DNA of 64,000 nucleotides from Edaphochlamys debaryana. Lineage: Eukaryota; Chlorophyta; Chlorophyceae; Chlamydomonadales. Of the stretch, positions 3,428-63,200 are shown one piece after another; position 1 is the stretch's first letter, and every line of letters starts with the position of its first letter. The notes beneath the pieces are model-generated. The model ran no database searches and was not told where the DNA came from. It was given only the letters and a program-made list of their open reading frames with translations. A program made the translations under genes and the position numbers. Location: NCBI GenBank assembly GCA_016858145.1, contig JAEHOE010000005.1:310001-374000 (forward strand), in the 5' to 3' direction.

Positions 3428-6400
3428 ATGGCTGCCTCTTCTGCTGAGCCAGACCCGCTTAAGGAGACGGGCAAGTATGAACGTGTCCAATCGCTAGGCA
3501 AAGGCGCGTTCGGCTTTGTGCAGCTCGGTCGGAATGTGCAGAGCGGGGAGCTGGCCGCTATCAAGTTTTTGAAGCGTGGGGACGTCAACAAGTACGTCGA
3601 GTCAGAAATCGTGAACCACAGGTGAGCTGGGCGGAGCGACGGGTGCTCGGTGCTCGGCACGGCCGAAGCTAGCGCCCAGCACCGCAACTCTGCCCCTGCA
3701 GCGTGCTCCGGCACCCGCACGTGATCCAGTTCAAGGAGGTCTTCCTCACGTCCGAGTACATTTGCATCGCCATGGAGTATGCGACGGGCGGGAGCCTGTT
3801 CCACTACGTGCAGAAGCAGACCAGGCTTAAAGAGGCCGTTGCACGCTGGTTCTTCCAGCAGCTCATCATCGGCGTGGACTACTGCCACAAGCGGGGCGTG
3901 GCGAACCGCGACATCAAGCTGGAGAACACTTTGCTGCAGAAAGTCAACGGCCTCCCGCTGCCCCTGCTAAAGATCTGCGACTTTGGATACAGCAAGGCGG
4001 ACTTCAAGTCCGCGGCGAAGAGCAAGGTGGGCCCCGCATGTCCACATGCACACATGTGGGGGCTGGCTGAGCTGGGGTTACGAGGCCTCTTTCGCGATGA
4101 TGCACGACGGATGAGGCTCCAGGGACGACAGGAGGGAGCAGCAGGTCTGAGAGAGCCGAGGTGCCACCGCTTCTGGGCCCTGGGGGACGTACCCACCTCC
4201 CGCCCCCTGCGTGGTGTTGACGCGCAGGTGGGCACGCTGACCTACATGGCCCCGGAGGTGCTGGTCAACCGGGACGGCAAGTACGACGGCAAGGTGAGGG
4301 ATTGAAAGCATGGGCCTATTATGCTTGTGTAATCATTTAAGCGGCCCCCCAGCACCAGAAAGGCCAGAAAGCCAGCCCGAAAGCCTAGCCACACACTGCC
4401 CCAGGTTCACCCACCGCGCTTCGGCTAGGCAGCGGGCCATCCTCAGACCGCCCGCCACCTAGCCTGGCCCGTCGCCCCAGCACCGGGCTCAGTGTCCGGG
4501 CCTGATCGCTCTAGTCAGACGGCACCCGCCTAGACCTGGGCCTAGGCACCCAGACCTAGACCTAGACCTAGGCCTAGGCACCCGCCCCGCCGGTCTCGTC
4601 GCTGCTGCCGCCTCCTGCCCCCGCCAACGCCGCCAACGCTCCGTTGCGCGCGCGGGCGGTGCGCGCCGCCGCCTTGCGCTTGGGCTTGGGCTTGAAGTTG
4701 AGCTGCGGCCCAGCCGCCGACGTGCAGCCGGGGCAGCCGGTCTCTGCGCCGCACGCCGCCCAGGCCTCCGGCAGCCCCGCCCGCGTCGCAGCAGGCCGCT
4801 GCGCGCACGGCCGCGGGCGTCATGGTGAAACGAACAACGGAGAGCCGGCCTGCGCCTCAGAAGGCGGCATCGACGGAAGGGGGGCAGGAGGGCGGCCTGC
4901 CCTCTAGGCAGACCAAGCGGCCCGGGCAGCGGGCAGTCCCCGTGGGCGATCCCTGTGGGCGATCCCTGTGGGCGATCCCTGTGGGCGATCCCCGTGGGCA
5001 CCTCCTGGCAGCGGGTCCAGCAGCAGCAGAAGCAGCAGTGGCACCGTCGCTTCAGCACTCTCATGGTCCCGTGCCCCGCCACCCCCCTCCCCCCGTGCCG
5101 CACCCCAGGTGGCGGACATCTGGAGCTGCGGCGTGATGCTGTACGTCATGTTCTACGGCCGGTACGAGCGTACGGCAGGCGGGGGAGGGCACGTGCAGGG
5201 TTGTGGATGGACGGGCGTGCTGGGGCACGGCGAGCACAGGCCGGAGGAGGGGCTGTCGCACGGAGGGGCCCCATAACCCTCTGGGGCCGGGCGGCACGCA
5301 CACGCCAGCCGTATGATGGAGTGCTAGGCGGCGGCGGCAGCCAGCGGGCGGCCGACGGAGCTCGGCTGCTTGTATTCGGGACTGGGTGGAGAGGCGGTGG
5401 CAGCGGCTGAGGAGGGCAGAGCTTTGCATAAGGTTGGGAGGCGAGAGCGGCTGCCCGGGCGACAGGAGCGCCTCCTTGTCGTGTGGAGCTGGGCTGTGCG
5501 GGGCCGGGGTGGAGGAGCCAGCGGCACCGGCTAAGGAGCACCAGCGGCGCCGTCCGTCCCAGCCGCCAGCTATGCGAGCTCAGAGCCCAGCTCCAGGCCG
5601 CCGCGGGCGGGGAGAGGCCCAGGGCACGCGGCACCCGACGGCCCCCGGCGGCGGGGCCAGGGCGGGAGTGGGTCCAGATGGCCCCGCTCGGCTGGCATCT
5701 GGGCAGCATGCGCCCGGTCAAGATCCAGATCCAGATCCACCGGCTCGGGCATCACGTCCGTTCGGTCATGTCCTCCCCGCCCTGTGGCGCCAGCCTCAAC
5801 CCCATGCCTTCTCATCACTAGCACCCAGCCCCCAGGGGTGCCAGCAACCCCCCCCCCCCACCCCCCAGGTATCCCTTCGAGACGCCCGCGGGTTCCGCCA
5901 TGCCCAAGGCCACCGAGATCCTGGCCATGCTGGACAACATGGTGGGGGCGGGGGGGTGAAGGGGAGGCAGCGTGTGTGTTTCGCCGACGCGTCACGTGGC
6001 GGCGCAGGAGGGCCCGGAAGGCATGCGGACGGCGGGGCGGGGCGGACCGTCAGCCCACGGGGGGATAGTCCACGGGGTGTTGACTTTGCGCTCCCTTCCC
6101 GGCCTTTTCTCCCCGCCCTCCCGACGCTCCGGCCCCCAGGTACGGCAGCGGTACGAGCTGTCTCCCCACGTGGAGATCTCGGAGCCGGGCAAGGATCTGC
6201 TGAGGCGCATGCTGCTGCCCGACCCCAAGGTGGGGACAGCGGGGTGGGAGGGGTGGAAGGGAGGGCAGGAGCAAGCCTGGGGTAGACGAGGGGCAAACGG
6301 GGCAAGCGCACTCATCAGCGGGGGCGGCAGGCTTCGCCCGCGGCCCCCAGACCCAGCTCACCTCACCTCACCCCCAAGTGCTCACCCCTCCATCACCCCC

Positions 6401-7013
6401 ACCCCTCCATCACCCCCACCCCTCCATCACCCCCACCCCTCCTCTGCCCCCCGCACGCAGGCCCGCATCACGCTGGAGGACGTGATGACTCACACCTGGT
6501 TCACCACCAACCTGCCGCCCGAGGTGGGGGCGCATAGGAGCGGGGGGTGGGAGCGGGAGAGGGGGAGGGAGCGGGAGGAGGGGAGGGAGGGACGGCGCCA
6601 GAGCCGGAGCCGGGAAGAGGCGGGGCCAGGGCGTGGCGAGGCCCAGCGGTGGAACTGAACACGTGCCCGAGCCGGTCAGCTCCAAGGCCGGCCCCACGCA
6701 AAACACACACGTTTGCCCCCTCTTCCCCCTCCCTCCCCCCTCTCCCGACCCCTCCCCCCAGGCCGCCTCCATGAACGAGTCCTACCTCAAGGCCGGCTTC
6801 CCCGCGGGCCACCAGTCGCCCGACGACATCAAGCGCATCATCGAGGAGGCCAAGGGCCGCGCGGCGCCGCGGCCCGCGGGCGCCGTCCCGGGCGCCGCCC
6901 CCGGCGCTGCCGGCGAGGAGAGCTACGATTCCCTCATGGACTCGGCCATCAATGAGGACCTGCGGGAGCACCGCAGCGCGGAGCTGCAGCAGTTCGTCAA
7001 GACGTACAGATAG
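3428..7013 (+). CDS. SNRK2: SnRK2-type serine/threonine protein kinase
   Basis: This is a stress and osmotic/ABA-type Ser/Thr kinase of the plant SnRK2 family. Eight exons join in phase: 3428-3621, 3702-4026, 4228-4293, 5109-5161, 5869-5941, 6140-6229, 6461-6523 and 6762-7013, giving 371 residues, a normal SnRK2 length. Visible motifs are the glycine loop GKGAFGFV, the lysine in AAIKFLKRG, KICDFGYSK (DFG), the activation segment ending TYMAPEVL, and ADIWSCGVMLYVM. The C-terminus is rich in Ala, Pro and Glu (EESYDSLMDSAINEDLREHR), as in SnRK2 regulatory tails, but no clear ABA box is seen. The catalytic HRD motif reads NRD (ANRDIKLEN). The intron at 4294-5108 contains a 13-bp tandem repeat. 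The family call is strong; the exact subclass is not resolved. Confidence 0.92.
4942..4999. repeat. 13-bp tandem repeat in SnRK2 intron 3
   Basis: The unit GTGGGCGATCCCT is repeated four times head to tail, followed by a partial fifth copy. It lies about 110 bp before the exon 4 acceptor. It is intronic and has no visible coding role. Confidence 0.85.
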
Positions 7014-9319
7014 ACGGATGTGGATGGGTTGGGATTGGGAGGGGAGGGCGGGGATGGGAAGGGGAGGAGGAGAGGGGAGGAGGGCAGGGGAGAGGTGGAG
7101 GGCGGAAAGGAAGGCGGGTGGGATGGGGGAGGATGGAGCAGGGAGGGTACGACGGGAGGGGGGAAGGGTTTGGTGTGGACTTGGCTGCCTGGGGTTGCTG
7201 GGGCAAGGACGGGAGGCAGCGTACGGTGGACGGGCCTCGCCTCGTGTGGCATTACTGACTCGCGACCAGGGCTTGGGGCAGGGCAGTTGGTACAGCGAGA
7301 GCAGGAAGGGATGCGGAGGCAGCTTGTTTTGTCAGGACGCTTCGCGCTGTAAGGAGGCGCGCGTATCGGACATGAGTTGACGGCTTGGGCCTTGGCCGTG
7401 GGTTGAAGGCGTGGGCTGAGCGCCGCTGCGGGGCTGGCGTTGCGGCCGGCGACAGCAGCTGTGGGTTCCACTGTCTGGCGCTTTGTTGCCCTGCGCAACC
7501 GGCCGTGATTTTAGGGGGGTCTGTGCTCGCAGGGGCCGTGCAGCGTAGTCAGGACGACGACGGCGGGGGATGCGGCTAAACGCAGCTAGGCTGTGTGCTT
7601 TGATCTTACTTAGGGGGAGGGGTCGGCTTACATATTGTGAAGGGTCAGATTGGTGAGCAGAGAGGGTGATACTGGTCATGCGGCCCAGGCTTCGCCGGCT
7701 CTGAGCGAGGGCAGGGGGGTTTCTGTGCTCGCAGGGGCCGTGCAGCGTAGTCCGGACGATGACGAAGGGGGATGCAGCTGAGCGCGCTGTCGCAACGCGA
7801 GAGAAGAAGGCACGGTGCCAGCAATGCGGATCGCCGAGGCAGGGTGTGGGGTGTAGTTGACAGGTGTTCTGATAACACGAACGCCCCCCCTTCCTAACGG
7901 CCATCAAGGCATGTTTCCAGGTGCCAGCAGCCGGCCTCAAACATCTACTCCAGCACGTACGCCGCCACAGCACCACCATAAGCCCAGTCAATCAGTAACG
8001 GCAAGGCATAGGGGCCCAGACAGACATAGAGGTCCATGAGCACTGGGGGCGAACTCGGACCCCCACACTTCAGAGTTCGAGCAGTATCACATTAAGCTTG
8101 TCTCAGTTCTAACCCTCGTATGTCCATGGTATCAGCATGCATACTCGTCAGCTGGGCCCCGGGAGCCACTCCAAATTACCCCCAAGGAACCCAAGTGTCA
8201 AGGGACAGTACGCGTAAGTGAGTTCGGGGACGGAGCTCACCCTCATGCCACGGTCAGCGCTGAGTCCTCTACACGCCACCTCTAAGCGCATGGAGAGCTA
8301 TCAGTGTGCCGGACTTCCTCAAAGGCCACCCCCTAGGTCGTTGCCCCCCCCCCGTTAGCGCGCTCCCTAGGAGATCCGATCCAGCAATACGCTAGGTGAA
8401 GTTCCTCTCCGACCATACATCACCGATGGGCACCGGGCTCTGGTGTGGTGCCGAGGCTGCTGCCCCGCGACTCCCCCCGGGGTCTCCACCTGACTCCTCG
8501 GCCTCACACCTTTTAGATGGCTTCGAGTCGGAAGCGTTGAGATCGCCGGGCGGGATTACAGTTCCAGGGCTAACCGGCAGAGACGGCCCGCGCCCGCCCG
8601 AGCCTCGGAGCGGTTGGTGGTTGGCGCTTGGCATTTGCGTGACGGCTAGCAGCAATAGGGTTTCATGACATCAATCGCCGCACCAGTTCCACGTGAGCGG
8701 GCTACCAGACGGGGAGCGGGGGAGGGGGGAGGGAGGGAAAGGACGGCCACGGGACACGACGTCAGGAAGGCATGTGTGGGTCACGGTACCCTCTATCAGC
8801 TAGCGTGCGCCCGCTCTGCCCCGGCCGTCACCCGTCAGGCCACCAGGTGGCGTTCAACACCTCGTCTACAGCAGGCGGTTCACTAGCTGTGTTAGTTGCG
8901 GCCTGCCCAGCTCAACTGTCACAAGGCCGACACTGGTGTGCACGAGGTGGAAGCCAAGGGGAGGGGCGCGCAATTTAGGTGGGGTTCGGCAGGAGGGCAG
9001 GCAGGGTGAGTGGGATTTCAGACCATGCGCGCCGCCCGGTTCCAAGCCCGGATTCCGGGGGGCCTGCCCCCACGGGCCCACGGGGCTCATCCCTTCGCCA
9101 GCCCTCCTGGTGCGTTGCCGCTCGCCCCGCCGTAACTCACATTAGGGGTTTTGGCTGCCAAGGTGTTGAGGGCGGCTTGGGACTTCGGCGTCAGGCCGCA
9201 GAGGGAGGGCCCAAAAGCGGCCTCGTAGCAGGAGGTCGCATTCACTACCTGGGGCGCGGCTGGAGAGGGATGGGGCGGGATCGGATGGGGTTTGCAACAA
9301 CGAGCAATGCAGCAGCGCT
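7014..9319. other. SnRK2 3' UTR and gene-free region
   Basis: The first 350 bp are probably the G-rich SnRK2 3' UTR. Beyond that no gene was recognised. A roughly 65-bp imperfect direct repeat lies at 7513-7580 and 7712-7783, sharing the core GTGCTCGCAGGGGCCGTGCA. Base composition from 7600 to 8900 is less GC-rich than the genes. This may be old repeat or transposon-derived DNA leading into the LINE fragment. Confidence 0.4.
7348..7352 (+). promoter_or_regulatory. Candidate TGTAA poly(A) signal of the SnRK2 gene
   Basis: TGTAA is the usual volvocine poly(A) motif. This copy lies about 335 bp after the SnRK2 stop codon and is the first one seen downstream. The cleavage site would be expected some 10-20 bp later. 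Confidence 0.5.
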
Positions 9320-11092
9320 GTGCACGAGGGCATCCTCGGGATGGGGCATGGAGGGTCGATGGGACAGGTGAGGCGGTTTGAGGACGCATGGCGCGGGGTA
9401 CCTGTGCTTCGCTCACCGTACCCCAGAGCACGGCAGGCAGGGACACGTGCTAGCTTCACGGGTGCCCTCAGCCCTAGCTCGCCTTGGCTGGCGTCAGGCC
9501 TTGAGCTATCTACCGTACCCACGCCACATCGCAAAGAGCCCCAAACCCCCGATAGAGGAGCACCTTGGATGGGTAGGCCCAGCTCAATCCTGTCTCATGC
9601 CACGCGTGCGCTAGCACAAAAAGGCGCTGGCCAGGCGCTCACGCCGCGGTCAGAAGAGCACGAACGCCTTGGCAAGAGGCGCGCTCTTGGCTCGGGGCAC
9701 CGCCCGCCGTGGACCGCGCCGCTCGTCTCCCTGCTCCGCTCAACCCACCCAGCAGCACACCCGCTCTGCCTCCTGACAATGCGGCGCCCGACCTCGTCGA
9801 TCGGTCTCCGCATCTTGGGGGCCACAGTCCAACGCGCAACCTCACCAGCACTGGTGCGCGTGGCAGGCGCGCTAGCGCTGCTGCCCCGGGCCCAAGTGAT
9901 TGCTCCCATGCCAGCCGGAGCCTGGGTCTACAATGCACCGCTTTGGGGCAACCCAGCCCTGCCCGCGGGGAACATCGACAACAACGCCCCAAGCTGGGGC
10001 CTCGAAGGCGAGTTCACAGATCTGTTCGCGGTTCCGGGACTGCGGACAGTAGGCACGGCAGTCCGCTGCCTAGATGAGCTTGAGCGCATCCGAGGGATGC
10101 ACGGGCTGGAGGGCAGCATAGGCCGGGCTCTCGCACGGGCGAGGGCCCAGATCAACAGGTCATATACCGAAAGGGTAGTACAGAGCATTTTGGGCACGCA
10201 GGTGGGAGCACTCCCGCAAGCACTCCGCAATGGACTAGACATGGGACAGCGCCTGGGCGCGCTTATTAGCCGGCTCCCGGCCGGGTGGGCCGAAGCAGCA
10301 CGGGGGGTGGACGATCAGGCGGCCGCCCCAGGGGAAGAAGAGGCTTGGGCGAACATTGCCAGGGGCATAGGCTGGGAGGACGTCAGCTTGGCAAAGATGA
10401 CAGTTAGCCTGGCCACGCACTTGCAATTGGGACCGGCTCGGGTTAAGCTAGCACGGAAGCATGCACTTTACATTCAGGAGGCGTACGGCACAGACACGGC
10501 ATCAGCAGAAGCAGTGGCAAGTCTGAAAGCGGTTTGGCCGAGGTTGTGGGGCATTAAGTGGGATCCGGGCAATAAAGAGCCCTTGTGGAGGCTGGCGATG
10601 GATGGCTTCCCGGGATTTGGCATGCACCGGAGCCAGTTAGGAACTGAGAACGTGGAGAGGTGTCCGTGTGGGCGGGCCATGGAGCAAGGCGATCGGCTCC
10701 ACCATTTCTGGTATTGTCCAGCCGCTGTGGCTGTTCGTATGCGCCTCAGTCATGGTATTGGCAGGGCGGTGAAACGACACGAGGTGTGGCTTGCTGTGCC
10801 CCCAGAGGGCACCGGGATTCATGCGCGAGTGTGGGACGTGGTGTGTCTGGCCGCGATATGCGCGATGGACCGGGCCAGAAGGTACAAGTATGCGCACAGG
10901 GACGCTCAGGACCACTCCTTGATGATGGCACAGGCTTTAGCAGTAGCACGAGGCGAGTTTGAGGGCCGTTTGCAGTGTTTTGCGGAGGTTGGGCTCACGC
11001 ACAGGGGCTGGGATGAGGTCCCAACCGACCACCCTTTCCTAGCGGCCAGGGCGGACGGATCAGTGCAGTATGCAGGCCCGGACGCCCCTTGA
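9320..11092 (+). mobile_element. 5'-truncated non-LTR retrotransposon (LINE) ORF2 C-terminal fragment
   Basis: A single open frame of 590 codons without introns stands out among the split genes. Its last part carries the zinc-binding domain found after the reverse transcriptase of plant and algal LINEs: WRLAMDGFPGFGMHRSQLG, then CPCGRAMEQGDRLHHFWYC, a C-x-C...H-x4-C arrangement. An Ala- and Arg-rich helical region (about 9770-10550) precedes it. No reverse transcriptase YxDD-type core or endonuclease is present upstream, so the copy is 5'-truncated, as is common for LINE insertions. The first 150 codons read like chance sequence, and the real element may begin near 9770. The frame is still open, which suggests a recent insertion. 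Confidence 0.75.
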
Positions 11093-11109
11093 TGGAGGCG
11101 GGGCACACC

Positions 11110-11300
11110 CTGCGGCGCATAACAAACGGGAGGGAGCCGCAGGGGGGGGGGGTTCGCCCGGCGGCGCATAACAAACGGGAGGGAGCCGCAGGGCAGGGGC
11201 GGGGACCGGGTGAGCTACACGTGGCGTTTGATGGGATGTGCACCTTGCGGAAAGGGGACATAGTCCTCTGCGGCGCATAACAAACGGGAGGGAGCCGCAG
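11110..11300 (+). repeat. Three hairpin-forming repeats in the LINE 3' tail
   Basis: Three near-identical units lie at 11110-11142, 11161-11191 and 11268-11300, starting 18 bp after the LINE stop codon. Units 1 and 3 begin CTGCGGC and end GCCGCAG, a perfect 7-bp inverted pair around a 19-base loop containing CATAACAAACGGGAGGGA. Unit 2 lacks the first two bases. Several LINE families use 3'-terminal stem-loops for template recognition by their reverse transcriptase, so a role in retrotransposition is a reasonable inference. Confidence 0.8.
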
Positions 11301-13019: not shown

Positions 13020-21177
<8,158 letters not shown>

Positions 21178-23546: not shown

Positions 23547-23581
<35 letters not shown>

Positions 23582-26500
23582 GCCGGCCGCGTGGGGAACT
23601 CCACGCCCCGCTGCGTCGCCATGACTCGCTCTCGCAGCATCTGCTCCTGACTCATGCTCTCGCCGTACGGTTTCTTGCCGTACAGCATCGAGTAGAAGAT
23701 GACGCCCGCCGACCACACGTCCAGCTGCGCGGCGGGAAAGGGAAAGTGTGACGTGGCGGTGAGGGGACGAGCGCAGCTTTGGGGGAGGGCATACCGGTGC
23801 CGTACCGTACCGTACCGTACAGGTTGGAAGCATCTCAGGGCATACAAACAGGTCTGGAAACGCGGCCCAGCCCCCAACCCCCGCCCGCCCCCCTTCCATC
23901 CCATCCCCTCCTCCCACCCCAGCCCCCATGCCCCACCCCTTGCCCACCTTGTTTGAGATGCGCGGCGGCGTGGGCCCCCCGGTCTCAAAGGCCTCGGGGG
24001 GCAGGTACCAGTAGGTGCCCGCCCCCTGGCTGGTGAGCTCGATTCCGGCCAGGGTGCAGCCCTCGGACACGGTCTGCGTGTGGGGGGCGTGTGGGGAGGG
24101 TGGGTGGGTGGGTGGGTGGGTGTGGGGTGGGTGGGCGTGTGCCTGGGGTTTGGGGTCGGCGGTCGGCGAGCCCGATGCGCGACGATGGATGGGTGGGTGG
24201 GTGTGGGTGTGTGAAAGCGGGGGTGATTCCGCTGCACGGTTGGCCGCACAGGTCTCGGTCGCAGTACAGGGGGTGCGCTTAGGGGTGTGTGTGCATGGGG
24301 TGTGGGAAGACGGAGGATGGCAGTTGGGAGAGGTGATGGGATACGGGGGCGGGGACGAAGGGCGAGGGCACCCACTCACCAACCCAATCTCCCAGGGCAC
24401 GGGGGCATGCAGACCTTGCCAGCTCCCCTCCCCCAACACCACCAACCGCCAACCGCCCAACAGCCGCACCTTACTCAGCCCAAAGTCCGTGATCTTGGCC
24501 TGGCCCAGGGCGTCGAACAGTATGTTCGCGGGCTTGAGGTCGTAGTGGATGATGCGGCGGGAGGCCAGGTAGCGCAGGCCCGAGAAGATCTGGGGTGGGC
24601 GGGGGGGCGGGGGGGGGGGGGGGGGGGGGAGAGGTGGGGCAGTGGGGGGGGGGGGGGGGATGCGGAGCTGCAGGGGATGCTAGCACACTGGTGGATAGGT
24701 GCGGATAGGTGTGGATAGGTGCGGATAGGTGTGGATAGGTGCGGATAGGTGTGGATAGGTGCGGATAGGTGTGGATAGGTGCGGATAGGTGCGGATAGGT
24801 GTGGATAGGTGTGGATAGGTGTGGATAGGTGTGGATAGGTGTGGATAGGTGTGGATAGGTGTGGACGAGTGGCGGCAGGGCGCGGGGCCAGGTAGCGCAG
24901 GCCCGAGAAGGTGGGGGTGGGGGTGGGGGTGCTGGTGGAGGGAGAGGTGGGGCAGGGCCGTGTCCGGAAGAACACGTGGGGAAGCTCCTGAGCGGGTCGT
25001 CGGGCTGGAGTGTGTGTACGGGCAAGCAAGGACAGGTCGTACGGCGTCAAATGTACGTGGCCACGTGGGCAAGCAAGCGCGCAACGGCTTGCAACCAGGC
25101 TTGTTGACTGGGCAGTCAGGCCGCCCCTCCAGGTCCCAAGGGACCCAAGGGCCTGTGCCCCCCCCCAGCACACCAGGTCCCCCCCACCTGAGCCATGATG
25201 CTCCGAGCCTCCTTCTCGGGAAGCGTCTGGGGGGGAGGGGAAGGGGGAGCGGGGGCGGGGGAGGGGGCGGAGAGGAGCCGGTGATGCATGCGTCACGAGT
25301 GCCAGAGACGATACCCACCCAACCCACAACCCTCGCAGCCCCTTTCCTCGCGCTCGCAGCACCCAGCCTCTCCAACTGCCGCCGTCGCGCCTCCTCTCCT
25401 CAAGTCCCTCTCCTTCCCCCTCTCCTCAAGTCCCTCTCCTCCCCCCTCTCCTCAAGTCCCTCTCCTCCCCCCTCTCCTCCCCCCTCTCCTCCCCCCTCTC
25501 CTCCCCCCCTCTCCTCAAGTCCCTCTCCTCCCCCCCTCTCCTCCCCCCTCTCCTCCCCCCCTCTCCTCCCCCCCTCTCGCCCCCCTCTCCTCCCCCCTCT
25601 CCCCCCCCCTCTCCTCCCCCCTCTCCCCCCCCTCCTCTCCCCCCTCTCCCCCCCCCTCACCCGGTGCTCCCTCAGCAACCCGTCCAGGTCCCCCCCCTCG
25701 CACAGCTCCAGTACGGTGGCGAATGTGTCGGCGTCAATCTCCAGCACGTCCAGCAGGCCCACCACGGCGGGGTGGCGCAGGCTGCAGGGTGGGGGGGTGG
25801 GGGAGGGGGCGGAGGGGAAACGGCAGTGGTTTGGGTGCGTGTGGGTGTGCGTGTGGGGGAGGAGGGGAGTCCAGAAGGCCCACCACGGCGGGGTGGCGCA
25901 GGCTGCAATGAAGGGGTGGGAGGGGGGCCCAACGGAAGGGGTTTGGGTACGTGTTAGCTTATGTGTGTGTGGGGGGGTGACGGTGTGAAGGTGGAGGCAG
26001 GGGGCGAGCAAGATACTCGACCCACGTTACTCCCTCAAGTCACACGCTCCCACCACCCTGTTCAGCCGCCAGGCAAATCCGTGCAAGGATTCCCTGGACG
26101 CCACTGGTCTTAGTCGTGCCGTACCTGCGGTGGATGTCGTACTCCCGGATCGCGTGCCGTACGTAGCTCTCCTTCTTGCCCGCGCTCCAGCCGGGCGTGA
26201 GTGCGTGGATCTTGACGCACACGTACCGCGCGTCCTCCAGGTCGTACGCCTGCGGGCAGCACGTGAGCAACATCGTACGGCATGTACGGCATTTACCAAA
26301 CGGCATGATCCCTTGCTTATTTGTACCGCCCAGCAACCCTCTTCCCGTGCCATGCCCCCCCCCCAACGCCTCCCTCCATCCCCCTCCCCACCTTGAACAC
26401 CTCGCTGAAGCCCCCCTTGCCCAGCAGGTTCATCAGAGCGTAGCTATGTGTGTGTGGGGGGGAGGTGAGGCAAGAAGGGCCATGGGAGATGTAAGAAAAG

Positions 26501-43246: not shown

Positions 43247-43284
43247 CGTAGAATCGCTCCCCGCAGAACGACCAACCAGCAAAC

Positions 43285-46200: not shown

Positions 46201-48182
46201 AAACTTGCGGCGCGGTATCCGGGGTGGAGTGGGCATTTCTGAGGCAACAGAGGAGACAGTCCCGTCAGCGTGCCCGGCAGCGTGCCCGGCAGCCGTAGAC
46301 TGACTAGCTAGGCATGACTGACTGGAATCGGACAGCTCCGTCGGATGCTGCGGACAGGACGCTGTGGACTTGGATTTGGGAATTGGGATCGAACGGATGG
46401 CTCTGCAGCGGGGGGGCCTCGCCTTGGAAGCCTGCACCGCTTGTGCACCGGCGCGCTGAGACCGGGGGGACGCCCTGCCTTGGCCGGCCTGTGCAGGTGC
46501 GCATTCTGGTCAAGCGCGACGAGCTGACCCTGGAGGGCATCAAGCAGTTCTACGTCAACGTGGACAAGGAGGAGTGGAAGCTGGACACCCTGTGCGACCT
46601 GTACGAGACCCTGGCTATCACGCAGTCGGTCATCTTCGCCAACACCCGCCGCAAGGTGCGGCGGCGTGGGGCTGCGGAAAGCGGCCGGGGCCGGGGGCTG
46701 ACAGACTCTGGGGCATCGGTATCGGGGCCGGCGGCATCTGGGCCGGAGCGTCGCCTGAGGCTGTCTGTGGCTCTTTATGGGCGGCAGCCTTGGGCCCGAT
46801 GGCAGCAGGGTCAGGGGCACCCGTGGGGATGGGGCCGAGTCAGCACCATCGGGGCGGGGCGGGCCAGGGACGCTGGATTCCCCAGCTCTCTGCGCCCGGG
46901 GTCAAGGGCTCGCCGCTGTGTCGCTCCCCCCCTAGCCAAACCCATCACAGCTAGTACCTCCTCACCTACTTCCCACCCATGCACCCGGCCCCCAGGTGGA
47001 CTGGCTGACGGACAAGATGCGCGAGCGCGACCACACCGTGTCGGCCACGCACGGCGACATGGACCAGAACACCCGCGACGTGATCATGCGTGAGTTCCGC
47101 TCGGGCTCGTCGCGCGTGCTCATCACCACCGACCTGCTGGCGCGCGGCATCGACGTGCAGCAGGTGGGGGGGAGGGCGGGGAGGGAGGAGGGGGAAGGAG
47201 GAGGAGGGGGGGTCGGGCTGCGCTGGGCTGGCGGGGGGAGGCTGTGGGGGAGGGAGGGTTGTGGGAGGCTCAGGGTGGAGTGGGGGGTGAGAGTGAGAGG
47301 CGTCTGCGCGCTCGGGCCCGAGCTGCTCGCTGCGAAGGGTGTGGAGCTGGCGAGGAGGAGTGCCGACTGGGGACCGGCCGGCTTGAGCATGGAGCCTGCA
47401 AGCGGAGGACTGGGCGGGCGGATTCACAGCGCCTCTGGCAAAAGGCCAGGGCCCTGCCAGGCGCTGCCGCCGAGCCACGCAACCGGTCTGCCGTTCACCC
47501 TTCCCCATACTCAAGCCCTGGCCGCCGCCCCCATGCAAGCCAGCCCCTTGTTAGTTAGGTTCACCCCCTCCCCTTCCCCCCCCCTCGCCTCCCCCACCCC
47601 CCCCCACACACAGGTGTCGCTGGTGATCAACTACGACCTGCCCACCCAGCCGGAGAACTACCTGCACCGCATCGGCCGCTCGGGCCGCTTCGGCCGCAAG
47701 GGCGTGGCCATCAACTTCGTCTCCAAGGTGGGGGGGAGGCGGGGCAGTGGGGGGGCCTGGGCTCTGGGCCTGGGTGGGCTGGGGCAGGGGCGGGGGCAGG
47801 GTCGGGCGGGGGGAGCAGGGGCAGGGGCAGGCGCGGTGGGGGCCACTCCGGGCACCCCGCGCTCCTAGGGAGCCTAGCCACACCCTTGTGAGGCTGCTCA
47901 ACCAATCGCGCTTCCGTCCTCACGCCCTGGCCTGCCTGGACCTTTCTTCATCTTTTTTTACCCTCTTAGGACGACGAGCGCATGCTCCATGCCTGCATCC
48001 CCTCACTCTTTTCACGTCGTATCGTGCCTCACAGCTCTCAACCAACCGCTCACTCGCCCTGCCACCCTGCGCTCTTCCGCTGCTCCCAACTGCAGGACGA
48101 CGAGCGCATGCTCCAGGACATCCAGCGCTTCTACAACACCGTGATCGAGGAGCTGCCCTCGAACGTGGCCGACCTCATCTAA
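43285..48182 (+). CDS. EIF4A: Eukaryotic translation initiation factor 4A (DEAD-box RNA helicase)
   Basis: eIF4A unwinds mRNA 5' leaders as part of eIF4F in the cytosol. Ten in-phase exons give 415 residues, the usual length: 43285-43358, 43450-43556, 44170-44402, 44829-44900, 45283-45447, 45989-46057, 46497-46655, 46996-47163, 47614-47727 and 48096-48182. Motifs in order are the Q-motif region [18 protein letters not shown] (I), PTRELA (Ia), TPGR (Ib), DEAD (II), SAT (III), [10 protein letters not shown] (IV), [13 protein letters not shown] (V) and [13 protein letters not shown] (VI). The protein ends [10 protein letters not shown]. The N-terminus [15 protein letters not shown] is specific to this lineage. 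A truncated copy of the exon 10 start with its own acceptor lies in intron 9 at 47970-47989. Confidence 0.97.
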
Positions 48183-52222: not shown

Positions 52223-52502
52223 GCTGGCGTTTCTAGGGCTTGAGCGAAGCGCTTGCGGGGTTGTGGAGCAAAGTCTTGGCTCCAGGCTTTAGGTTATCTA
52301 CAGTGCGGAGTGAGCAAGCGAGCGCGGTTGGGCGCATGGCCTCGAAGCGCAGCACGCAGCACAGCTGATGAGCTCTGCCGCTCAGCATCGAGGAAGCTCC
52401 GTGGCTGAATGCCCCCGCGACGCAACCGCTTCGCTTCCTACACAGCCCAACACCGCTTCGCCGGGGCCTTCAGGCTGTTGGAGGCCTTTGGCGCGCCAAG
52501 CA
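52223..52502. promoter_or_regulatory. Shared 280-bp bidirectional promoter region
   Basis: The two F-box/LRR-like paralogues start 280 bp apart on opposite strands, so their promoters must overlap or be shared. No TATA box was seen. The arrangement is what an inverted duplication of one gene would leave. Confidence 0.5.
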
Positions 52503-54765: not shown

Positions 54766-55213
54766 GGGATCAGAAGCAAAGCGCAGTGCAGCTCAGTGCA
54801 CGAGGGTTGTGCAAACATGCAACAGCGTTGAAGGGGTAGGGGTAGGGTGTGTCGCATGTGAGGCACGGGTGTGAGGAACGAAACGTCAACGTTGTCTGAT
54901 TCTGTTTGCACTTGACTGAACATGGTTGTCAGGCCTAGTTGCCGGCACGGCTGGTTTGCGGGCAGGGCCAGGCCCCGGGGGTCCGCTGGGGGGGGGGGGG
55001 AAAGGCTGGTGCAGGGTTCGTGCCGGTGTGATCGGCATTGGCCGAGTGTCCGCAGGTTGGCGCGGCGGAGTGCATGCCCGGCGCCCTTATGAGTGAAGTA
55101 TCGCATAAGCATGCTACGATCGTGCTAGCTGCCGGGCCGCCCGCGGCGGCTACCAGCCCATCCCGTATGTGGGCGTGACATGATCGTGCTCCTTGACCGG
55201 GCCCTTACGGCCC

Positions 55214-55218
55214 TGTAA
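55214..55218 (+). promoter_or_regulatory. Candidate TGTAA poly(A) signal of paralogue 2
   Basis: TGTAA lies 449 bp after the stop codon at 54763-54765, a usual distance in volvocine algae. Confidence 0.5.
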
Positions 55219-55957
55219 CATGCCCTGCGAAGGCATGTGCCTGGGCTGGGCAGGGCCTGGCGAGGCGGAGCATAATCGTATGGGCGAGGCCCAGAGCTGT
55301 TAGTTTAGCTGACCCATGGCATGGTGTTGTACAGGAGTTTGGGGAGAGTGAGGCTGGAGGGTCTGGCTATAGGCTAGGAATGAGGAGTATCAGCCATGGC
55401 GCCCGAGCGGGCCGCCAGGCTGTGAAGACTTATCACCGATAGCTTTTGAAGTCGGGCTAGCGACTGTGTGCTAGGGTGGGGTGCATACGGCATCTAAGCT
55501 CAGCCGTCGGAGCTGTTGTTTGCTTAACTGCTTGAGTGGACGGGCAGCGGTTGGCAGACGCCCTGCGGGGCACTGCCCTCCCTGATCTCCCTTGCAAAGA
55601 CGCTCCACAGCGCTCCATAGCTGATCGGGGCAGCAAATACCAGGCGGCCCGTGGGGCTTCTGGGCACCGCTGCAAGGATATCAGGAGTGCGCAGTGGACA
55701 TGCAGCAGTGTAAGCTGTGGAAGCTGCAGCCAAGAATGACGGGGGGATGTCCTGGAGGCCGCCTAGCACTGGCTGATTAAGTTGACACCACGCGAGCTCC
55801 TCAGGGTGGAGCTGGGGGGGCTACAGGGACACAGCTAGCTATCACTCATGGCTGCTGGGGCTTCAAAGTCAGGGCTGCTTTGAGCTGGGCCTGGCTGGTC
55901 TGATGACACACCGGGCAGCACCATAGCGGGTCGGGGACGCCTTGCATTGACTTGAGC

Positions 55958-55962
55958 TTACA
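55958..55962 (-). promoter_or_regulatory. Candidate TGTAA poly(A) signal of pherophorin
   Basis: TTACA on the plus strand is TGTAA on the minus strand. It lies about 515 bp after the pherophorin stop codon. Confidence 0.45.
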
Positions 55963-56476
55963 ATGCCGTGGGGACGCCAGGCCCGCCTCAACCAAATGGG
56001 CTGATTGAGAACGGATGGCTCCAGGTCCCACGCACTGCAGGCATGCCTCAGGTGCCAAGGGTGCAAGCCTTCAGGCCTTGACAAGGCCAGTCTTCCTCAA
56101 CAGCACCAGGTCGCTTCCGAGCACATGCGGACCCCCAACTTGGGCCGCAGATCATCAAATTGAATTTCAACCAAACCTCGAGCTACACCTGAGCCCGTAC
56201 GTACTACACACGCCCCTGCGGATGGCACCGGGTTCTGTCGTACGGCAATACCGCATCACTGCCCACCAGTCAGTCAGTTCATACCCATATCTTCAAGTCA
56301 GCCCACCGCTACACTAGCGCAATACCCGCGTCCGAATGCCGAGTCACTCCTGCGACGAGACTCCTGCCGTGGTCAGCCTGCTGCCGAGAGCTTATTGCCC
56401 TGGCCACAACGGGGCCTCGTTGCAAATCCAGCCAGCCTCATGCGTTGCCCACACTTTTTCCGAGCGCTCTTGGGTT

Positions 56477-58023
56477 TTAGAGCGACACGGAGCTGAGCGG
56501 GCAGCAGTTGAGGGGGCCGGTGCCGGGCTTGTTGAACAGGCCGACGGTGCAGGTGCCGTCGTGGAACGCGCACAGCTTCTTCAGCGAGTTGCACTGGGGG
56601 CGCAGGTAGAGGCAGACCTCGGTGTCCTCCACGGCCGAGAGCGCCTTGTCGATGTTGGTCACCTTGATCGCTGGGAAGGGCGAGGTCTGGAAGAACGGGG
56701 GTTTGCGAACGCCATTGAGCTCCGTGTACGCCAGGGCGTCCTGGCACGTGCCGTCCACCTCAAATTCCATCTTGTACAGCTCAAACTGGCAGCACTTGGA
56801 CTTGGGCTGAGAGCACACGTCCTTGAGGCCGACGTTGAAGCAGATGCGGGTGAGGCCGTTGACGGTGGTGACGTTCTTGGAGGCGGTGGTGAAGAGGCGG
56901 GAGCCGGCGGCGTTGCGCTGGCACTGGCAGTGCGGGAAGTCGGAGCGGGGGGCGGGGGCGATGGGCGGCGGGGGGGAGGGCGGCGACGGCGAGGGCGGGG
57001 GCGGCGGCGGGGGAGGAGGAGGGGGCGAGGGGGAGGGGGGGGGGAGGGGGAGAGGGGGGGGAGGGAGACGGGGGAGGAGGGGGCGCCGAGCCGGTGATCC
57101 CCACGGGGCAGCAGTCGTTATCCTTGTTGAAGATGGCGTACTTGCACAGCCCAGACCCGGCGGTGCAGAGCTGGTTGAGGCGGGAGCAGGGGGCGGAGGC
57201 CGAGAGGAAGAGGCAGATCTGGGTGCCGTCGGCGCCCTCTGCCGTACGGCCGAGGCCGGTCACGCGCAGCACGTTAAGGTTGGTGTTGTACTCGTACGGC
57301 ACCTGCTTGCCGTCCACAGTCACCTTGCGCATGGAATCCTTGCAGCCGCCAACTGGGGGTTGGGGAGGAGGGGGGCGGATGCGGATTTCGTCAGCACGCA
57401 GCCTTGGGCAAACTCCTCTCCGGAGGCTCCGCAGCCAATTTCATAGCTGCTGCTTCCCGCCGCCGCTTGTTCCGAAGCACGGGTCCCGCCCCATGGCTGT
57501 CCGCCCATGTCCACCTCTTGGGCGCCCGCAGGAAGGCGCCCTCCGCCCCTCCGCCGCCGACCGGTACCCTTACCCTCTCCACCCTTGCCCCCCCCCCGTC
57601 CCCCCTCAGCCGCACCCCACCCCGCCGCCCCTTCTCACCGACGTCAAACTCGACCTTCTGCACCCCCTGCTTGCCGTCGCAGCACTTGGAGGTGGGGTCG
57701 CAGGTGCCAATGTCGTCGACGCGGAAGCAGTAGCGGCGCAGACCGGGCTCAGTGCCCGAGGTCGTGTCGTCCAGGGCGAGGCGGAAGGGGGACTTGCGGG
57801 CGGTGCGCTCGCAGTTGCATAGCGGCGGGAAGAGAAGCTTGGAGGTGGAGGAGGAGGTGGAGGAGGGTCCGCGCTTCTTTGCTTGGAGGAGGTGGCGGGA
57901 GCCGCGGAGACCGAAGAAGTCGGTCTCCTGAGCGGCTGAGGCGGGGCTGGCGCACAGCACGGCTGCGGCCAGCAGGGCGAGGGCGGCGCTCGCGAGGAGC
58001 GCCCGGGATGTCCGCATCATCAT
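56477..58023 (-). CDS. Pherophorin (extracellular matrix glycoprotein), frame break in the proline spacer
   Basis: Pherophorins are hydroxyproline-rich proteins of the volvocine cell wall. Exon 1 (58023-57639) begins MMMRTSRALLASAALALLAA, a signal peptide, and encodes the first globular domain with CNCERTARKSPFRLA, YCFRVDDIGTCDPTSKCCD and VQKVEFDV. Exon 2 (57352-56477) continues [20 protein letters not shown], a Pro/Ser rod, then the second domain (DFPHCQCQRN, RICFNVGLKDVC, KCCQFELYKMEFEVDG, CNSLKKLCAFHDGTCTVGLF, NCCPLSSVSL). The two halves are in different frames. The joined exons total 1261 nt, one too many, and the shift falls in a G10 run at 57035-57044 inside the rod. This is most simply a homopolymer length error or a recent one-base insertion. 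Without it the protein would be 419 residues. Confidence 0.88.
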
Positions 58024-60271
58024 CGTTGTCGTCGTCCGAAGTTTTGCTAGGGTAGCCACCAAAGTCAGCTAAGGGGCGCGCTGACTGTTGGAAGGCTCTA
58101 AGAAGAGCGCGAGCTTTCTGCGGAGGGTGCGGAGGGGAGGGGACTCAGTTAGGATGGCGCGACGGGAACACGAGCAGCCGTCGGGGCGTGCCTGCCGACA
58201 CCACCCGCGCCTTCCCAGCTTGCACCCTTTCTAGCCCCAGAATGTCATGATCCCAATTTTATAGCCCGGTAATGCCGTCCCTCGCGCTCGCAGCGTCGCT
58301 AACCGCACGCACCTGTCGGCTTGTGGGGCAAAGGCGGTTCGCGCAAAGCTCCTGTCGCGAGACAGGCTATTGCACTCTAAGAGCGACTCGGAACGTAGGG
58401 ACCTAGAGCAAAAGCTAACGCGTGCCAACGGGGTAGGCAGCGCGCGGTCGTCTACGATGTCACCGGCCTGACTTGTCCTCTAAGGGAAACAGCACCAAGG
58501 TGTGTGGTGCTGCTCAGGCGCGGGTCCGGTCTGCTAGGAACTGGTAAGCCGAGGCTCTGAGTCTGGTCGGAACGCGGAGCCACTATAAGGGTCCGCGATT
58601 GGGCCCGGCGGGCGGCAGTAGTGCGCACAGGCCCAGTTGCGCGAGCCGTCCGCCAGACCGCGTTGCTGCCTGAGGCAAACCATATTCCTCTAACATTTGA
58701 ATAACTCTGCAGTATCAACGCAACAGGGCTCGCGGCCAGTCAGCCTCAGACTCATCTTACCAACGCAATGCTCGTTGACAACCCTGCGCCGAAGCTAACC
58801 GCGCCGCATCCGTAGTGACAAAGACGCCTCTAGTATGACCAATGCACTACTACCATTGCTAGACCCGTATGGCCCCCTATGCCCCACGCCCGGCCATCCC
58901 GACGCGGGCACACGCACGGAGCGGGTTGAAGCGGCCTCCCCGCACGCATCCCGCCTGCGGAGCTCCAGGAGAGGAGAGCACTCTCAGTCACCACCGCTTT
59001 ATCACAACCACACACGGAACTGCAGTGAACTGCTGGTCGCGCCAACTGGATTCACGGGCCTTGGCCGATTCGTGCGAGGGATGGCCGCCGCACGGGGCCG
59101 CCGCCCCCCCCCCCAAGCCTTCAGCACGGCAAGCCTTCAGTAAAGACAGGGCCGCGCAGGTTACTCGATCCGCGCACTGCTGGTGGCCTTCGTCTTTCTG
59201 CCTCCTCTTTCTACCAAGGGGCCAGGGCCGCGGGTGTCCGAGGGCACGGACGAGAGGCTCCGGGACATCCGAACTCCAGGAGGGAGGAGCTCCCTGGGAA
59301 GGCTGGGATGGGTGGGACATGGGCTGGGGCACACGCATGATGGCTTGGCACTGCCTCTTGTCCATCGGATACCCTGTCAGGTCTCAACACAGGGTGGCGG
59401 CGCGGGTTGACGGCGCAGCATGGCGCCTCCCGGCGCAGCTCGCTCAGGCTAGCTGTTGCCCGCAGGCGGATGCCTCAATTGAGCTTACAAGCCAGGGATA
59501 AGGGCAGTCAAGTCGCCTCGGAGGAAGCAGGGGTGCAGGGGACCCCGCTGAGCGCGCTGAGAGGCGCTGCGCATGTGCGGGTTGGCGGGGAAATTGTGAG
59601 GGTGTTGCGCGGGCTGCCGCGGGCCTTCCCAGTTGAACCCAGCCTAGATGGGCTCGAATGATCACTATATGATTCGTCATGCGCGTGTGGTGTCGGCGCT
59701 GCTTGAACCGCGCGCGCGAGGGGTAGGCTTGCATTCCCGGCGACGCGCGCGAACCGTCGCTGCAAGTGCACCGCCGCTCGGCGTCCACCTCCTTGCCCAA
59801 CGGTCCACTTGCCTTGCATAGAGTCAAACCCGCGCACTGCATACTGCTGCCTAGGCCTGGCAGGTCAGGGAATTGTCCATCATCAGGGCTTTCGGGGGCC
59901 ACCGGCAAGCCCGGCGACTGTCTTAGCAGCCAAGTAAAGCCTGTTAGCGCTTGGCAACATCATCACAATCAGCTAGCGTGCTACCGGTGGGGCAGGGCGG
60001 TGGTTTGAGGGTTGCACCAACAATCTCACCGCCCGCGCGCTGCGGCACAGTGCTTCAAGCCCGTCCAGCCGGGCCACCTAGCCCTGCTACACAGAGACTC
60101 GTGCTCACCGGTGTGCTTCCCGGGCCTAGTCAGTCGAGCCCACTTGGACACAACTCACACCGCGCAGGCGAGCCAGCCCGCCCCCCGTCACTTGGCCCTT
60201 GGTGCCCACACACCGACGCGGACCCAGCTGAGCTCCCCGCCTTTCCTGAACTCCTGGTTAGGTCCCAAGGC
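58024..60271. other. Divergent gap between pherophorin and the M48 peptidase gene
   Basis: The pherophorin promoter and the upstream region of the peptidase gene lie here. Open frames between 58835 and 60270 have no recognisable product. An ORF extends in frame upstream of the peptidase start to 59951, so a longer N-terminus is formally possible. Confidence 0.35.
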
Positions 60272-63200
60272 ATGGCGGGCAGCGCCCCGCCCGCGCTCCA
60301 GCCCCTGGCCCGACTCGCCACGGCCGCCTGCCGGCTGGGCTCCGCTGGCTGCGGCGGCCTCCATGCAACAGCCCCACACCTCCCGCTGGGCCTGGGCCCA
60401 TCCGCTCCGTCCCTCCTCCTTGGCGACCTCCGACTCTCGCACGCGCCCTCCCTCCCAACCCGCCTGGGCGCCCTCTGGCGCCAGTTCTCCTCCATCCGCA
60501 GCCTCCATCCGCAGCCCGGCCGCCTACCGGCCTCCGGTGTAAGCTCCTCCACCGCCTCCGCATCCTCCTCCTCCTACTCATCATTCTCAGTGGCCGCTTC
60601 CACAGCAGCGGCACCAGCAGGCGGCTGGGCGGCGGCAGCAGCGGCCGGTCCGCTGTGGCGTAGCGGTGCGGTGCGGCGGCTGACGGCGCCGGCGGCCCCC
60701 GCGCCACCGTGGGTGGACCCGCCGATCCCGCCCCCGCCCTCGGCCTTTCAGCGCTTCGTCAGCGGCACCGTGGGCCTGTGAGCGGGGCCTGGGATGGGCC
60801 AGGGCCTGGGCCTGGTCCTGGGCCTGGGCCTGCGGTGGGCCTGGCTGGGCGGGTTGTGCAGGGAACCCCGTTGGGCGGAGGGCACGCCTGGTGAGCCCGC
60901 AACGGGACCCAGCCGGCCATTGCACGAGCGAAGCGGTCGCGTGTGGGGCCCCGGGTTGCGTCGTTTTCCGCCATCCCCAGCAGAATGACAAGGGCAGAGC
61001 TGCAGCTGTTGCCAATTGATCGCTCTCAGCGAGCACCCGCCAACTTAGTGGCAATGGCCTGGCCGTTCCCGCAGGCGGGGGGCCGAAGCAGAGCTAGGGA
61101 CCCACCTCAACCCCAGCCGTGCAGGTCACTTTGCGGCACAGGCGCGCGCGCCTGCCAAGCACCCCGCGACTGATGCCTGACGGGTACTGCCCCTGCGCCC
61201 CTTGCCTTCCGCCCCCTTGACCCTGGTAACCGCGCAGCTTCCGTGGCATCATGTACTCATCGCTGCTGCTCTACTTTCTGTACCGCTCCTATGAGGAGGT
61301 GCGGTGTGCGGTGTGTGCTGGGTCGTACCGTACCCGCGCGTGGAGACGGGACTGACCCTAGCCAGTAGCAGTAGTAGTGTTGGATAGGACCGTATTCCCC
61401 GAGCGTAGGGATATTAATGAGTAGGAATAAAGAGGGCGGGGGCGGCAGCCAATGCGGGAGCCCCCCTGCTGAGGTCTACCGTAATAAGGGGGAAAGGCCG
61501 CGGTCAATGAGGGAGACTCACCAACTGCACTGCTGCACGTGCTGGGCCCTGCTCACCCGGCTCCCCGCTCCTCCTCCTCCTCCTCCTCCTCCTCCTCCTC
61601 CTCCTCCTCCTCCTCCTGCCCCCCCCCCCAGGTCCCCGTGTCCGGCCGCATGCACGCCGCAGCCTTCGTGCCCTCCCCCCTGCTGGCCATCAAGCGGGAG
61701 GTCAACACGTACGAATTCCACAAGGTTGGGGCCTTGGGCTTAGGGAGCGGACAGCAGGGGAGGCGGGTGGCCAGGCCGGCATAGGAGTGCTCTGACGGTG
61801 GAGGTTTGGGCCTGACTCCCGCCCACCCCCCACCCGTACTGGCGTACCGCACTCCGCCCGCAGCTACGGCAGGAGGCGGCCAAGCAGGGCCGCGTGCTGC
61901 CGCCCACGCATCCCTACGTGCAGGTGGGTGCAGCTAGGCACAGTATGAGGGCAAACCTAAACAAGTCAATATGCCAGAGCCCAGGCGTGCACGGGTATGC
62001 GCTGCTCTTGGTTGCTTGCAGACGAGGGCAGCGTAGCTGGGACAAGAAACACCTAGAGGATTCAGCGCCTGGGCGACCGCATCGCGGTGGCCGCCGCCAG
62101 CCCACGCGTCACGAAACACACACGCCCTCCCCCCCCCCGCTCTCCCCCCGGCCCCCCCCCCCAGAGGGTGCAGCGCCTGGGCGACCGCATCGCAGTGGCC
62201 GCCGCCAGCCTGCCCGTGGGCCCCTCGGGGGAGCCCCCGGCGCACATGCGGGGCCTGCACTGGGAGTACCTGGTCCTGAAGGACGGGGCGGCCAGCGGAA
62301 TTCCAACCGCCGCCACGCGCTTCGATGGGAAGGTGGGAGCGGGGGGGGGGCGGTTGGCGGTTGGTGGTTGGCGTTAGGGGCCCCACGGTCGCCACGAGGT
62401 TCTAAGGGAAGGAGGGGTTTGGCGGCGGGGATGGGGAGGGAACGGGAGGCAGGGAGGTGGGGCTGCGGGGTGGTGGGTATGGGAAAGCACGGGATCAGAG
62501 GACGGCAGTAGAGTGGAGTGGAGACGAAAGGGAAACGTAAGGACCGGCGTCGGGCTAAGCACGACAATGGTAGGAGGTGTGTATGGAGGCAGGGAGCGGA
62601 GCAGTGGTACGGAGCCGAAGGGAGACATGAATTGGGAAGGGGCCAAGCGATGTGGGCGGAGACTGGGCTTTGTGCTGGGCTCAGATTCACTAGCCCCTCA
62701 CGGTGTGGATTCCGTCATGCCGTACGGCACAGGTGATAGTTTCGGCCGAGTACATCAAGCAGCTGGATCTGCTGTACGGCCCCCGTACGGCAGATGAGGT
62801 TTTGGCGCACACCATCGCCCACGAGGCGGGGCACATGGTGGCAAAGCACGAGGTGAGGGGATCAAGCAGGCGGCATGGGACGGATATGGGAGGGGGGGGC
62901 AGAGGGGGCGCCGGGGCAGAGCTGACAGCCCAGTTAACCTTGGGCAGAGGCCCTAACGCCCGTGTGCCCTCGCTCCCCACCACCACACCCAACCGCTCCT
63001 CCTCCTCCCCCCCCAGTGGGATATCGCCGCCTCCAAGCTCTTCCGCTCCGATGAGGAGACCGCTCGCATGCAGCGGAGGTAGGGTGCGGCGCGGGGTTAA
63101 GAAAGCAAGGGGTGTTGCGTGAGAAAGTAGACACGGCACGGGGCTGGGAGGCCAACGCCTTGGCCCGTTTACTCCGTCCTCGGCCCATCTCGTCCCAACG

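What the first reader, a model, noticed from the sequence alone, without database searches (positions are those of the whole stretch)
5942..62164. A recurrent AAACACACACG motif beside C-tracts marks intron ends in unrelated genes, in both orientations
Seen: near acceptors, the pattern CGTGCCRAAACACACACGCC followed by a C/T tract and AG occurs in the SnRK2 intron at 6524-6761 (about 6696), PAT introns at 14222, 14339, 16908, 18563, 18824 and 19587, and the M48 peptidase intron (about 62105). A relative, CCCATACACACACGC, occurs near 16127 and on the minus strand in the glycosyltransferase-like gene (35680, 35785). The reverse complement, GCGTGTGTGTTTCGCC-like, occurs just after donors at 5968 (SnRK2) and 20375 (PAT). 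Known: introners are transposable elements that create introns and may carry terminal inverted repeats. Inference: these introns may be members of one introner-like family, since the reverse complement of one intron's 3' end resembles another's 5' end.
Basis: partly seen in the sequence, partly recalled or inferred. Interest (0 to 1): 0.8.

Follow-up and report, generated by a model that had tools for sequence, protein, structure and literature searches.

The report
Splice-border duplicating insert in alga introns
In a green alga, the same short DNA motif sits at the ends of many unrelated introns, often beside a second copy of the neighbouring exon edge, so it seems to arrive with a duplication of roughly 110 bases that renews the splice site; why this happens is unknown.

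Summary
The motif is real: 14 window sites against 0.39 expected, and 894 genome copies of its 12-base core against 27 in the reversed control. The genome is Edaphochlamys debaryana. Geometry is fixed: motif, C-tract, splice border, exon. It holds at acceptors (99 places, control 0) and, as reverse complement, at donors (87, control 0). All 49 motif-bearing direct repeats have periods of 80-140 bp, median 113. In 22 of 40 events the outermost copy has no motif before it, so insert and duplication came together; 14 of 40 fit plain duplication of a border that already had it. One unit is exonised in an annotated phosphate acetyltransferase isoform. The introner idea is only partly right: bodies are not shared, inverted-repeat pairing is not the rule. 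I favour a short templated insert copied during repair at C/G-tract borders; a mobile element with long target duplications is the main rival. Architecture is shown; mechanism is inferred.

The parts
   Evidence: no exon-edge copy (score 10)
6701..6711 (+). motif core about 50 nt before an acceptor, SnRK2-like gene
   Evidence: no exon-edge copy (score 10)
14134..14436 (+). array of 2.6 units of 117 bp in phosphate acetyltransferase: exon-edge copies 14159-14202 and 14276-14319, coding edge 14393-14436, motifs 14220-14237 and 14337-14354; no motif before the first copy
   Evidence: one unit is retained in isoform P0001
14788..14946 (+). donor-side duplication (period 113): exon end from 14788 to 14826 plus donor is copied at 14901-14939 plus donor; degenerate motif 14859-14882 on the minus strand lies between
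16101..16211 (+). acceptor-side duplication (period 85): copy 16101-16126, motif variant ending 16149, C-tract with CTGACATCCCCCTCCGCC, acceptor, coding edge from 16186
16908..16959 (+). motif, C-tract and acceptor in phosphate acetyltransferase; no copy detected
18561..18611 (+). motif, C-tract and acceptor in phosphate acetyltransferase; no copy detected
18823..18861 (+). motif, C-tract and acceptor in phosphate acetyltransferase; no copy detected
19586..19642 (+). motif (1 mismatch), C-tract and acceptor in phosphate acetyltransferase; no copy detected
20335..20396 (-). donor GTGGGG of phosphate acetyltransferase with the reverse-complement motif core at 20380-20390; no copy detected
62057..62210 (+).
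25755..25907 (-). possible weak member: direct repeat of period 121 with a two-mismatch motif in a C-rich spacer

Best explanation
Shown: the motif CACGCGTGCCRAAACACACACG, after a variable lead of 0-31 nt, marks the junction of a tandem duplication of the exon-intron border with a unit of about 111 bp. The order is exon-edge copy, lead, motif, C-tract, splice border, coding exon. In 22 of 40 events no motif stands before the outermost copy, so insert and duplication came together. In 14 of 40 a motif does stand there, so those can be plain duplication of a border that already had it; 4 are unclear. The coding sequence can stay intact because the coding exon keeps a splice border at its edge while the older border and its exon edge stay in the intron. 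The C-tract side faces the exon, so the same insert serves acceptors on one strand and donors on the other. Repeated rounds make arrays, one of at least 47 units. Inferred: the insert is copied during repair or replication at the C/G-tract that flanks exons here. The growing G-rich strand would pair with the C-tract of an existing motif copy, copy the motif, and return to its own locus about 40 nt inside the exon, which duplicates the border.
For: Flanking copies at 75 of 135 sites (score 16 or more) against 1.7% of 644 mismatched pairs. Splice-like C-tract sites in the same loci: 12 of 25 with the motif have a copy, 8 of 106 without (Fisher p = 8.6e-6). Geometry: 136 of 161 core sites have the C-tract 3' of the motif, none has it only 5'. 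Motif-bearing direct repeats (at most 1 mismatch): 49 of 49 have a period of 80-140 bp although 30-1000 bp was searched. 40 event clusters: unit mean 111 bp, sd 11.7, exon copy mean 42 nt, sd 12.5. Outermost copy without a motif before it: 22 of 40, and 12 of the 22 clusters whose outermost copies are at least 95% identical. Repeats without the motif but with a tract share the period (14 of 24 between 100 and 130 bp), which points to a common duplication process. Inverted copies at both ends of one exon share extra lead sequence in C240 and C29, which suggests local copying.
Against: No enzyme, intermediate or empty site in a relative was seen. 14 of 40 outermost copies do have a motif before them. 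The matched control rests mainly on donor-type sites (10 of 14 against 5 of 48); acceptor-type sites give 2 of 11 against 3 of 58, and in the window alone 0 of 2 against 0 of 9. Likeness of nearby variants is raised only below 400 bp (13 pairs, p = 0.014, one of five distances tried) and not at 700-10,000 bp. In some events the old border has no C-tract (C5:372107, C132:200409, C67:29911), so the tract did not always come from the target. Nothing explains why one 20-nt sequence dominates or why the unit is near 111 bp.
Confidence: 0.43

Rival explanations
1. A very short non-autonomous mobile element, for example a target-primed retroposon with a C-rich 3' end, that inserts beside exon borders and makes unusually long target-site duplications (exon part 13-68 nt). 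Selection keeps insertions whose duplication spans the splice site.
For: The same sequence stands in hundreds of places. Direct repeats lie on both sides of the insert. The lead 5' of the motif varies, as in truncated elements. In C5:372107 the insert seems to have brought its own C-tract.
Against: No longer parent copy was seen in the 313 kb read: exon-edge copies further upstream did not exceed the null outside arrays, and printed upstream matches are motif units or one gene pair. Repeats of the same period without the motif exist. Target duplications given for some characterised introners are 3-9 bp (PMC9860276, passages). 116 of 136 sites have a splice-like border within 110 nt, where random insertion should leave many copies deep in introns.
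Confidence: 0.33
2. Introner: each motif-bearing intron is a whole element with terminal inverted repeats that created the intron.
For: Donor and acceptor forms are reverse complements. Four adjacent pairs lie, by orientation, at both ends of one intron.
Against: Bodies are not shared in the matches printed, and eight pairs lie at both ends of an exon. The array intron of phosphate acetyltransferase has an ordinary older border.
Confidence: 0.06
3. Conserved splicing signal: selection, not copying, keeps the motif beside the C-tract.
For: The distance from motif to border is mostly 30-45 nt, median near 38.
Against: It also occurs antisense at donors. In 12 of 22 clusters with outermost copies at least 95% identical the motif is at the junction while the older border has none, too fast for selection on point mutations.
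Confidence: 0.06
4. Ordinary minisatellite growth near intron ends, with the motif carried along.
For: Tandem repeats are known to gather near intron-exon junctions in Chlamydomonas reinhardtii and Volvox carteri (PMC3887541, abstract and passages). Arrays are present. 14 of 40 outermost copies already have a motif before them.
Against: The same motif is at junctions in unrelated genes; 31 of 40 clusters hold a single detected duplication; 22 of 40 outermost copies have no motif before them.
Confidence: 0.09

Closest known systems
Introners (introner-like elements)
   Same: Repeated sequence at splice borders of unrelated genes, often recent.
   Different: Here one border at a time is renewed, bodies are not shared in the matches seen, inverted-repeat pairing is not the rule, and the copied exon edge is 13-68 nt instead of a 3-9 bp target duplication.
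Tandem genomic duplication across an intron-exon border (potato RdRp case, PMC4974935, abstract and outline seen)
   Same: The duplicated segment crosses the border and reuses its splicing signals.
   Different: Here the duplication recurs in many genes, has a unit near 111 bp, and carries the same motif at the junction.
Tandem repeats near intron-exon junctions in volvocine algae (PMC3887541, abstract and passages seen)
   Same: Location and repeat character.
   Different: The text seen describes unit classes and densities, not a shared motif or exon-edge copies.
Short retroposons with target-site duplications (recalled class)
   Same: Short dispersed insert between direct repeats, ragged 5' side.
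   Different: No parent element or enzyme found in what was read; the repeats are long and tied to splice borders.

Membership tests
Introner | whole introns with similar sequence at many loci | tested here: not met
   24 contig pairs match upstream of the motif; the 15 longest (all that were printed) are motif units or the C32/C89 gene pair
Introner | creates introns at new positions | tested here: inconclusive
   searches show a pre-existing intron in one gene; C132:200409 could be a renewed or a new intron; no DNA of relatives was available
Introner | terminal inverted repeats (in the DNA-type families) | tested here: not met
   4 adjacent pairs at both ends of an intron, 8 at both ends of an exon, by orientation only
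Introner | short target-site duplication of 3-9 bp where present | tested here: not met
   exon part of the copy 13-68 nt, mean 42, in 40 clusters
Non-autonomous retroposon | flanking direct repeats with a ragged 5' side | tested here: met
   direct repeats with a lead of 0-31 nt; the other models expect this as well
Non-autonomous retroposon | longer parent or autonomous partner sharing the 3' end | tested here: inconclusive
   none seen in the 313 kb read; the rest of the genome was searched by short pattern only
Non-autonomous retroposon | RNA intermediate | not testable with these tools
   no transcript data
Tandem duplication of a splice border | direct tandem copy spanning the border | tested here: met
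Known RNA family | match to an Rfam model at gathering score | tested here: not met
   0 matches, window only

The most novel reading that the evidence does not exclude
A sequence that spreads without any enzyme of its own by using the host's repair at the C/G-tracts that flank exons. Each event copies the motif to a new splice border and duplicates that border, so the sequence multiplies as a passenger of splice-site renewal and seeds new satellite arrays inside genes.
Probability: 0.3. Interest if true: 0.86.

Novelty: new variant of a known kind. Interest (0 to 1): 0.68.

Why it matters
It would be a genome-wide source of duplicated splice borders that can leave the protein intact, lengthen introns, and supply alternative splice sites and new exon segments. 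One annotated isoform of phosphate acetyltransferase already contains a full 39-residue unit. In 9 of 40 clusters the aligned copies are identical, which suggests recent activity, so the mechanism could be tested in strains.

Tried and rejected
Whole-intron families and inverted-repeat pairs: not supported. Far copies of the exon edge that would reveal a long insert: none above the null outside arrays. Local spread of variants: not supported beyond 400 bp; that test leans against it, because most loci were fetched by the consensus. A constant total length through trade-off of parts (p = 0.0002) is confounded, since alignment end points shift length between parts; I do not use it. Origin of the C-tract: mean likeness of old and new upstream sequence 15.0 against 11.1 permuted (29 events), but that set still held some array members and single events differ, so both sources seem to occur. 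Foreign collections: viral contigs 0 hits; prokaryote genomes 3 hits in bacteria, taken as chance and not read. Rfam: 0 matches in the window. The opposite-geometry genome pattern did not complete; the count in 313 kb stands in for it.

Limits. All loci other than the window were fetched because they match the motif, so the share of motif-bearing repeats in them is not a genome rate; the window was handed over because of the motif. One search left out 8 sites with 2-3 mismatches, of which 1 has a copy. One search keeps the shortest period where repeats overlap; of its 9 repeats with two mismatches, 8 lie at 80-130 bp and 1 at 200-260 bp. Splice-type labels are automatic and some are wrong.

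Mended on checking: one search was added. I took the array at C2:3100915 off the list of clean first copies, because a degenerate motif may precede it, and corrected its size to at least 47 units. For this reason the best explanation went from 0.45 to 0.43 and the minisatellite rival from 0.07 to 0.09.

Papers: search listings; passages of PMC8226300 and PMC9860276; outline with abstract of PMC4974935 and PMC11782384; abstract and passages of PMC3887541. None of what I saw describes this motif; most subscription journals are not held.
Full report
What was checked. The window lies in a 141.9-Mb assembly. The phosphate acetyltransferase gene of the window is HYH03_002105 of Edaphochlamys debaryana, on a contig of the same length as the window's, and the assembly figures fit PMC8226300 (passages). 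Genome-wide the longer motif has 76 exact places and 0 in the reversed control, the 16-mer with one mismatch 262 against 6, and the 12-mer core 894 against 27, arrays included.

Geometry. The logo of the 92 sites with a C-tract, out of 131 non-redundant core sites, reads roughly CACGCGTGCCRAAACACACACGCYYYnCCCCC; conservation fades about nine bases before the core. Variants exist (GTCGGCR, CCCATACACACACG, TGACACG, CCGCCCA). In 136 of 161 core sites the C-tract lies 3' of the motif; 22 have no tract on either side, 3 have a G-tract 5', and none has a C-tract only on the 5' side. After the tract comes an acceptor (99 places against 0) or the reverse complement of a donor (87 against 0). A second piece, CTGACANCCCCCTCCGCC, seen in some of these tracts, is enriched by itself (61 against 1).

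The duplication. At 75 of 135 sites (66 at the stricter cut) the sequence just 5' of the motif repeats the exon edge beyond the splice border, against 1.7% (0.5%) of 644 mismatched pairs. Array members are counted in these figures. Against splice-like C-tract sites in the same loci the figures are 12 of 25 with the motif and 8 of 106 without; the gain comes mainly from donor-type sites (10 of 14 against 5 of 48), less from acceptor-type sites (2 of 11 against 3 of 58). In 40 clusters the lead between copy and motif is 0-31 nt, the exon part of the copy averages 42 nt (13-68), the unit 111 bp, and unit lengths show no preference for multiples of three (12, 15, 13). Two identities in that call (0.31, 0.63) are understated because gaps were ignored. 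Among direct repeats searched between 30 and 1000 bp, all 49 with the motif have a period of 80-140 bp with median 113; of 24 without the motif but with a C/G tract, 14 lie between 100 and 130. Several motif-poor repeats carry degenerate motifs; others, such as C13:1007840 and C4:1298507, show only the tract. In the window itself 6 of 12 direct repeats hold the motif with at most two mismatches.

Order of events. In 22 of 40 clusters no motif (3 or more mismatches) stands within 110 nt before the outermost copy, for example at window 14134-14436 and at C127:296901; there motif and duplication came together. In 14 of 40 a motif with at most one mismatch does stand there and in 4 one with two mismatches; those may be later duplications of a border that already carried the motif. 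Whether the C-tract came with the insert or from the target differs: C65:245280 and C55:405634 share tract landmarks on both sides, while in the M48-like gene (62057-62210) the exon copies are 94% identical but the old acceptor has no tract.

Effect on the gene. Joining 21 exons through the borders next to the coding exon gives one open frame that matches the deposited isoform P0002 at 100% over its whole length. The second deposited isoform P0001 is longer by exactly 39 residues, the translation of one 117-bp unit with the motif read as CQNTH. The four orthologs aligned (Gonium pectorale, C. incerta, V. africanus, C. reinhardtii) lack it. The annotation in PMC8226300 used RNA-seq and BRAKER (passages); I take the isoform to be a prediction from it, not a measured protein. 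In C132:200409, a gene whose translation resembles 6-phosphofructo-2-kinase (my recalled reading, not searched), the intron holds degenerate copies of both neighbouring exon edges.

Age. Of the 40 clusters, 19 have aligned copies at least 95% identical, 9 of them fully identical, some of these inside arrays; 60 of 135 sites have no copy at the score used. This fits long-running and recent activity. The paralogous stretches on C32 and C89 share one insert at the same place, so that insert predates their duplication.

Mechanism. The facts call for copying of an existing sequence into a border that is being duplicated. I prefer templated insertion during repair or duplication at C/G tracts because motif-free duplications of the same size exist, because no longer element was seen in what was read, and because two pairs of inverted copies at both ends of one exon share extra lead sequence. 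A mobile element with long target duplications remains close behind. The size near 111 bp and the success of one 20-nt sequence are unexplained.

Novelty. Tandem repeats near intron ends in volvocine algae are known (PMC3887541), and so are introners (PMC9860276) and border-crossing duplications (PMC4974935). The combination of a shared inserted motif, fixed geometry, characteristic size and use at both donors and acceptors was not seen in the listings or in the passages read.

Noticed in passing
window 17384-17443: A different dispersed repeat of about 47-60 bp inside a phosphate acetyltransferase intron; 88-98% identical stretches in C4, C127 and C164 loci.
   Followed up: no
window 17034-17201 and 47968-48115: Direct repeats of periods 136 and 126 without the motif; the first copies an exon edge of phosphate acetyltransferase.
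   Followed up: partly
G000 C67:370098-371265 (L051) and C67:167725-168093 (L050): Tandem arrays with periods 112 and 119 bp, without the motif.
   Followed up: no
G000 C2:3100915-3105906: Array of at least 47 motif-bearing units spaced 104-117 bp (the list was cut there); only its first end was read.
   Followed up: partly
G000 C32:39318-42333 and C89:342566-345581: Segmental duplication, 2607 of 2719 aligned bases identical; a G-tract duplication of about 77-85 bp is in the C89 copy only.
   Followed up: partly
L040, C13:1001373-1001553: Spacer of a direct repeat that looks like a U6 snRNA piece (recalled likeness, not searched).
   Followed up: no
intronic exon-edge copies at C65:240966 and C59:56392: The older copy lacks bases next to its splice border, as if the competing site had been removed (read).
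   Followed up: no
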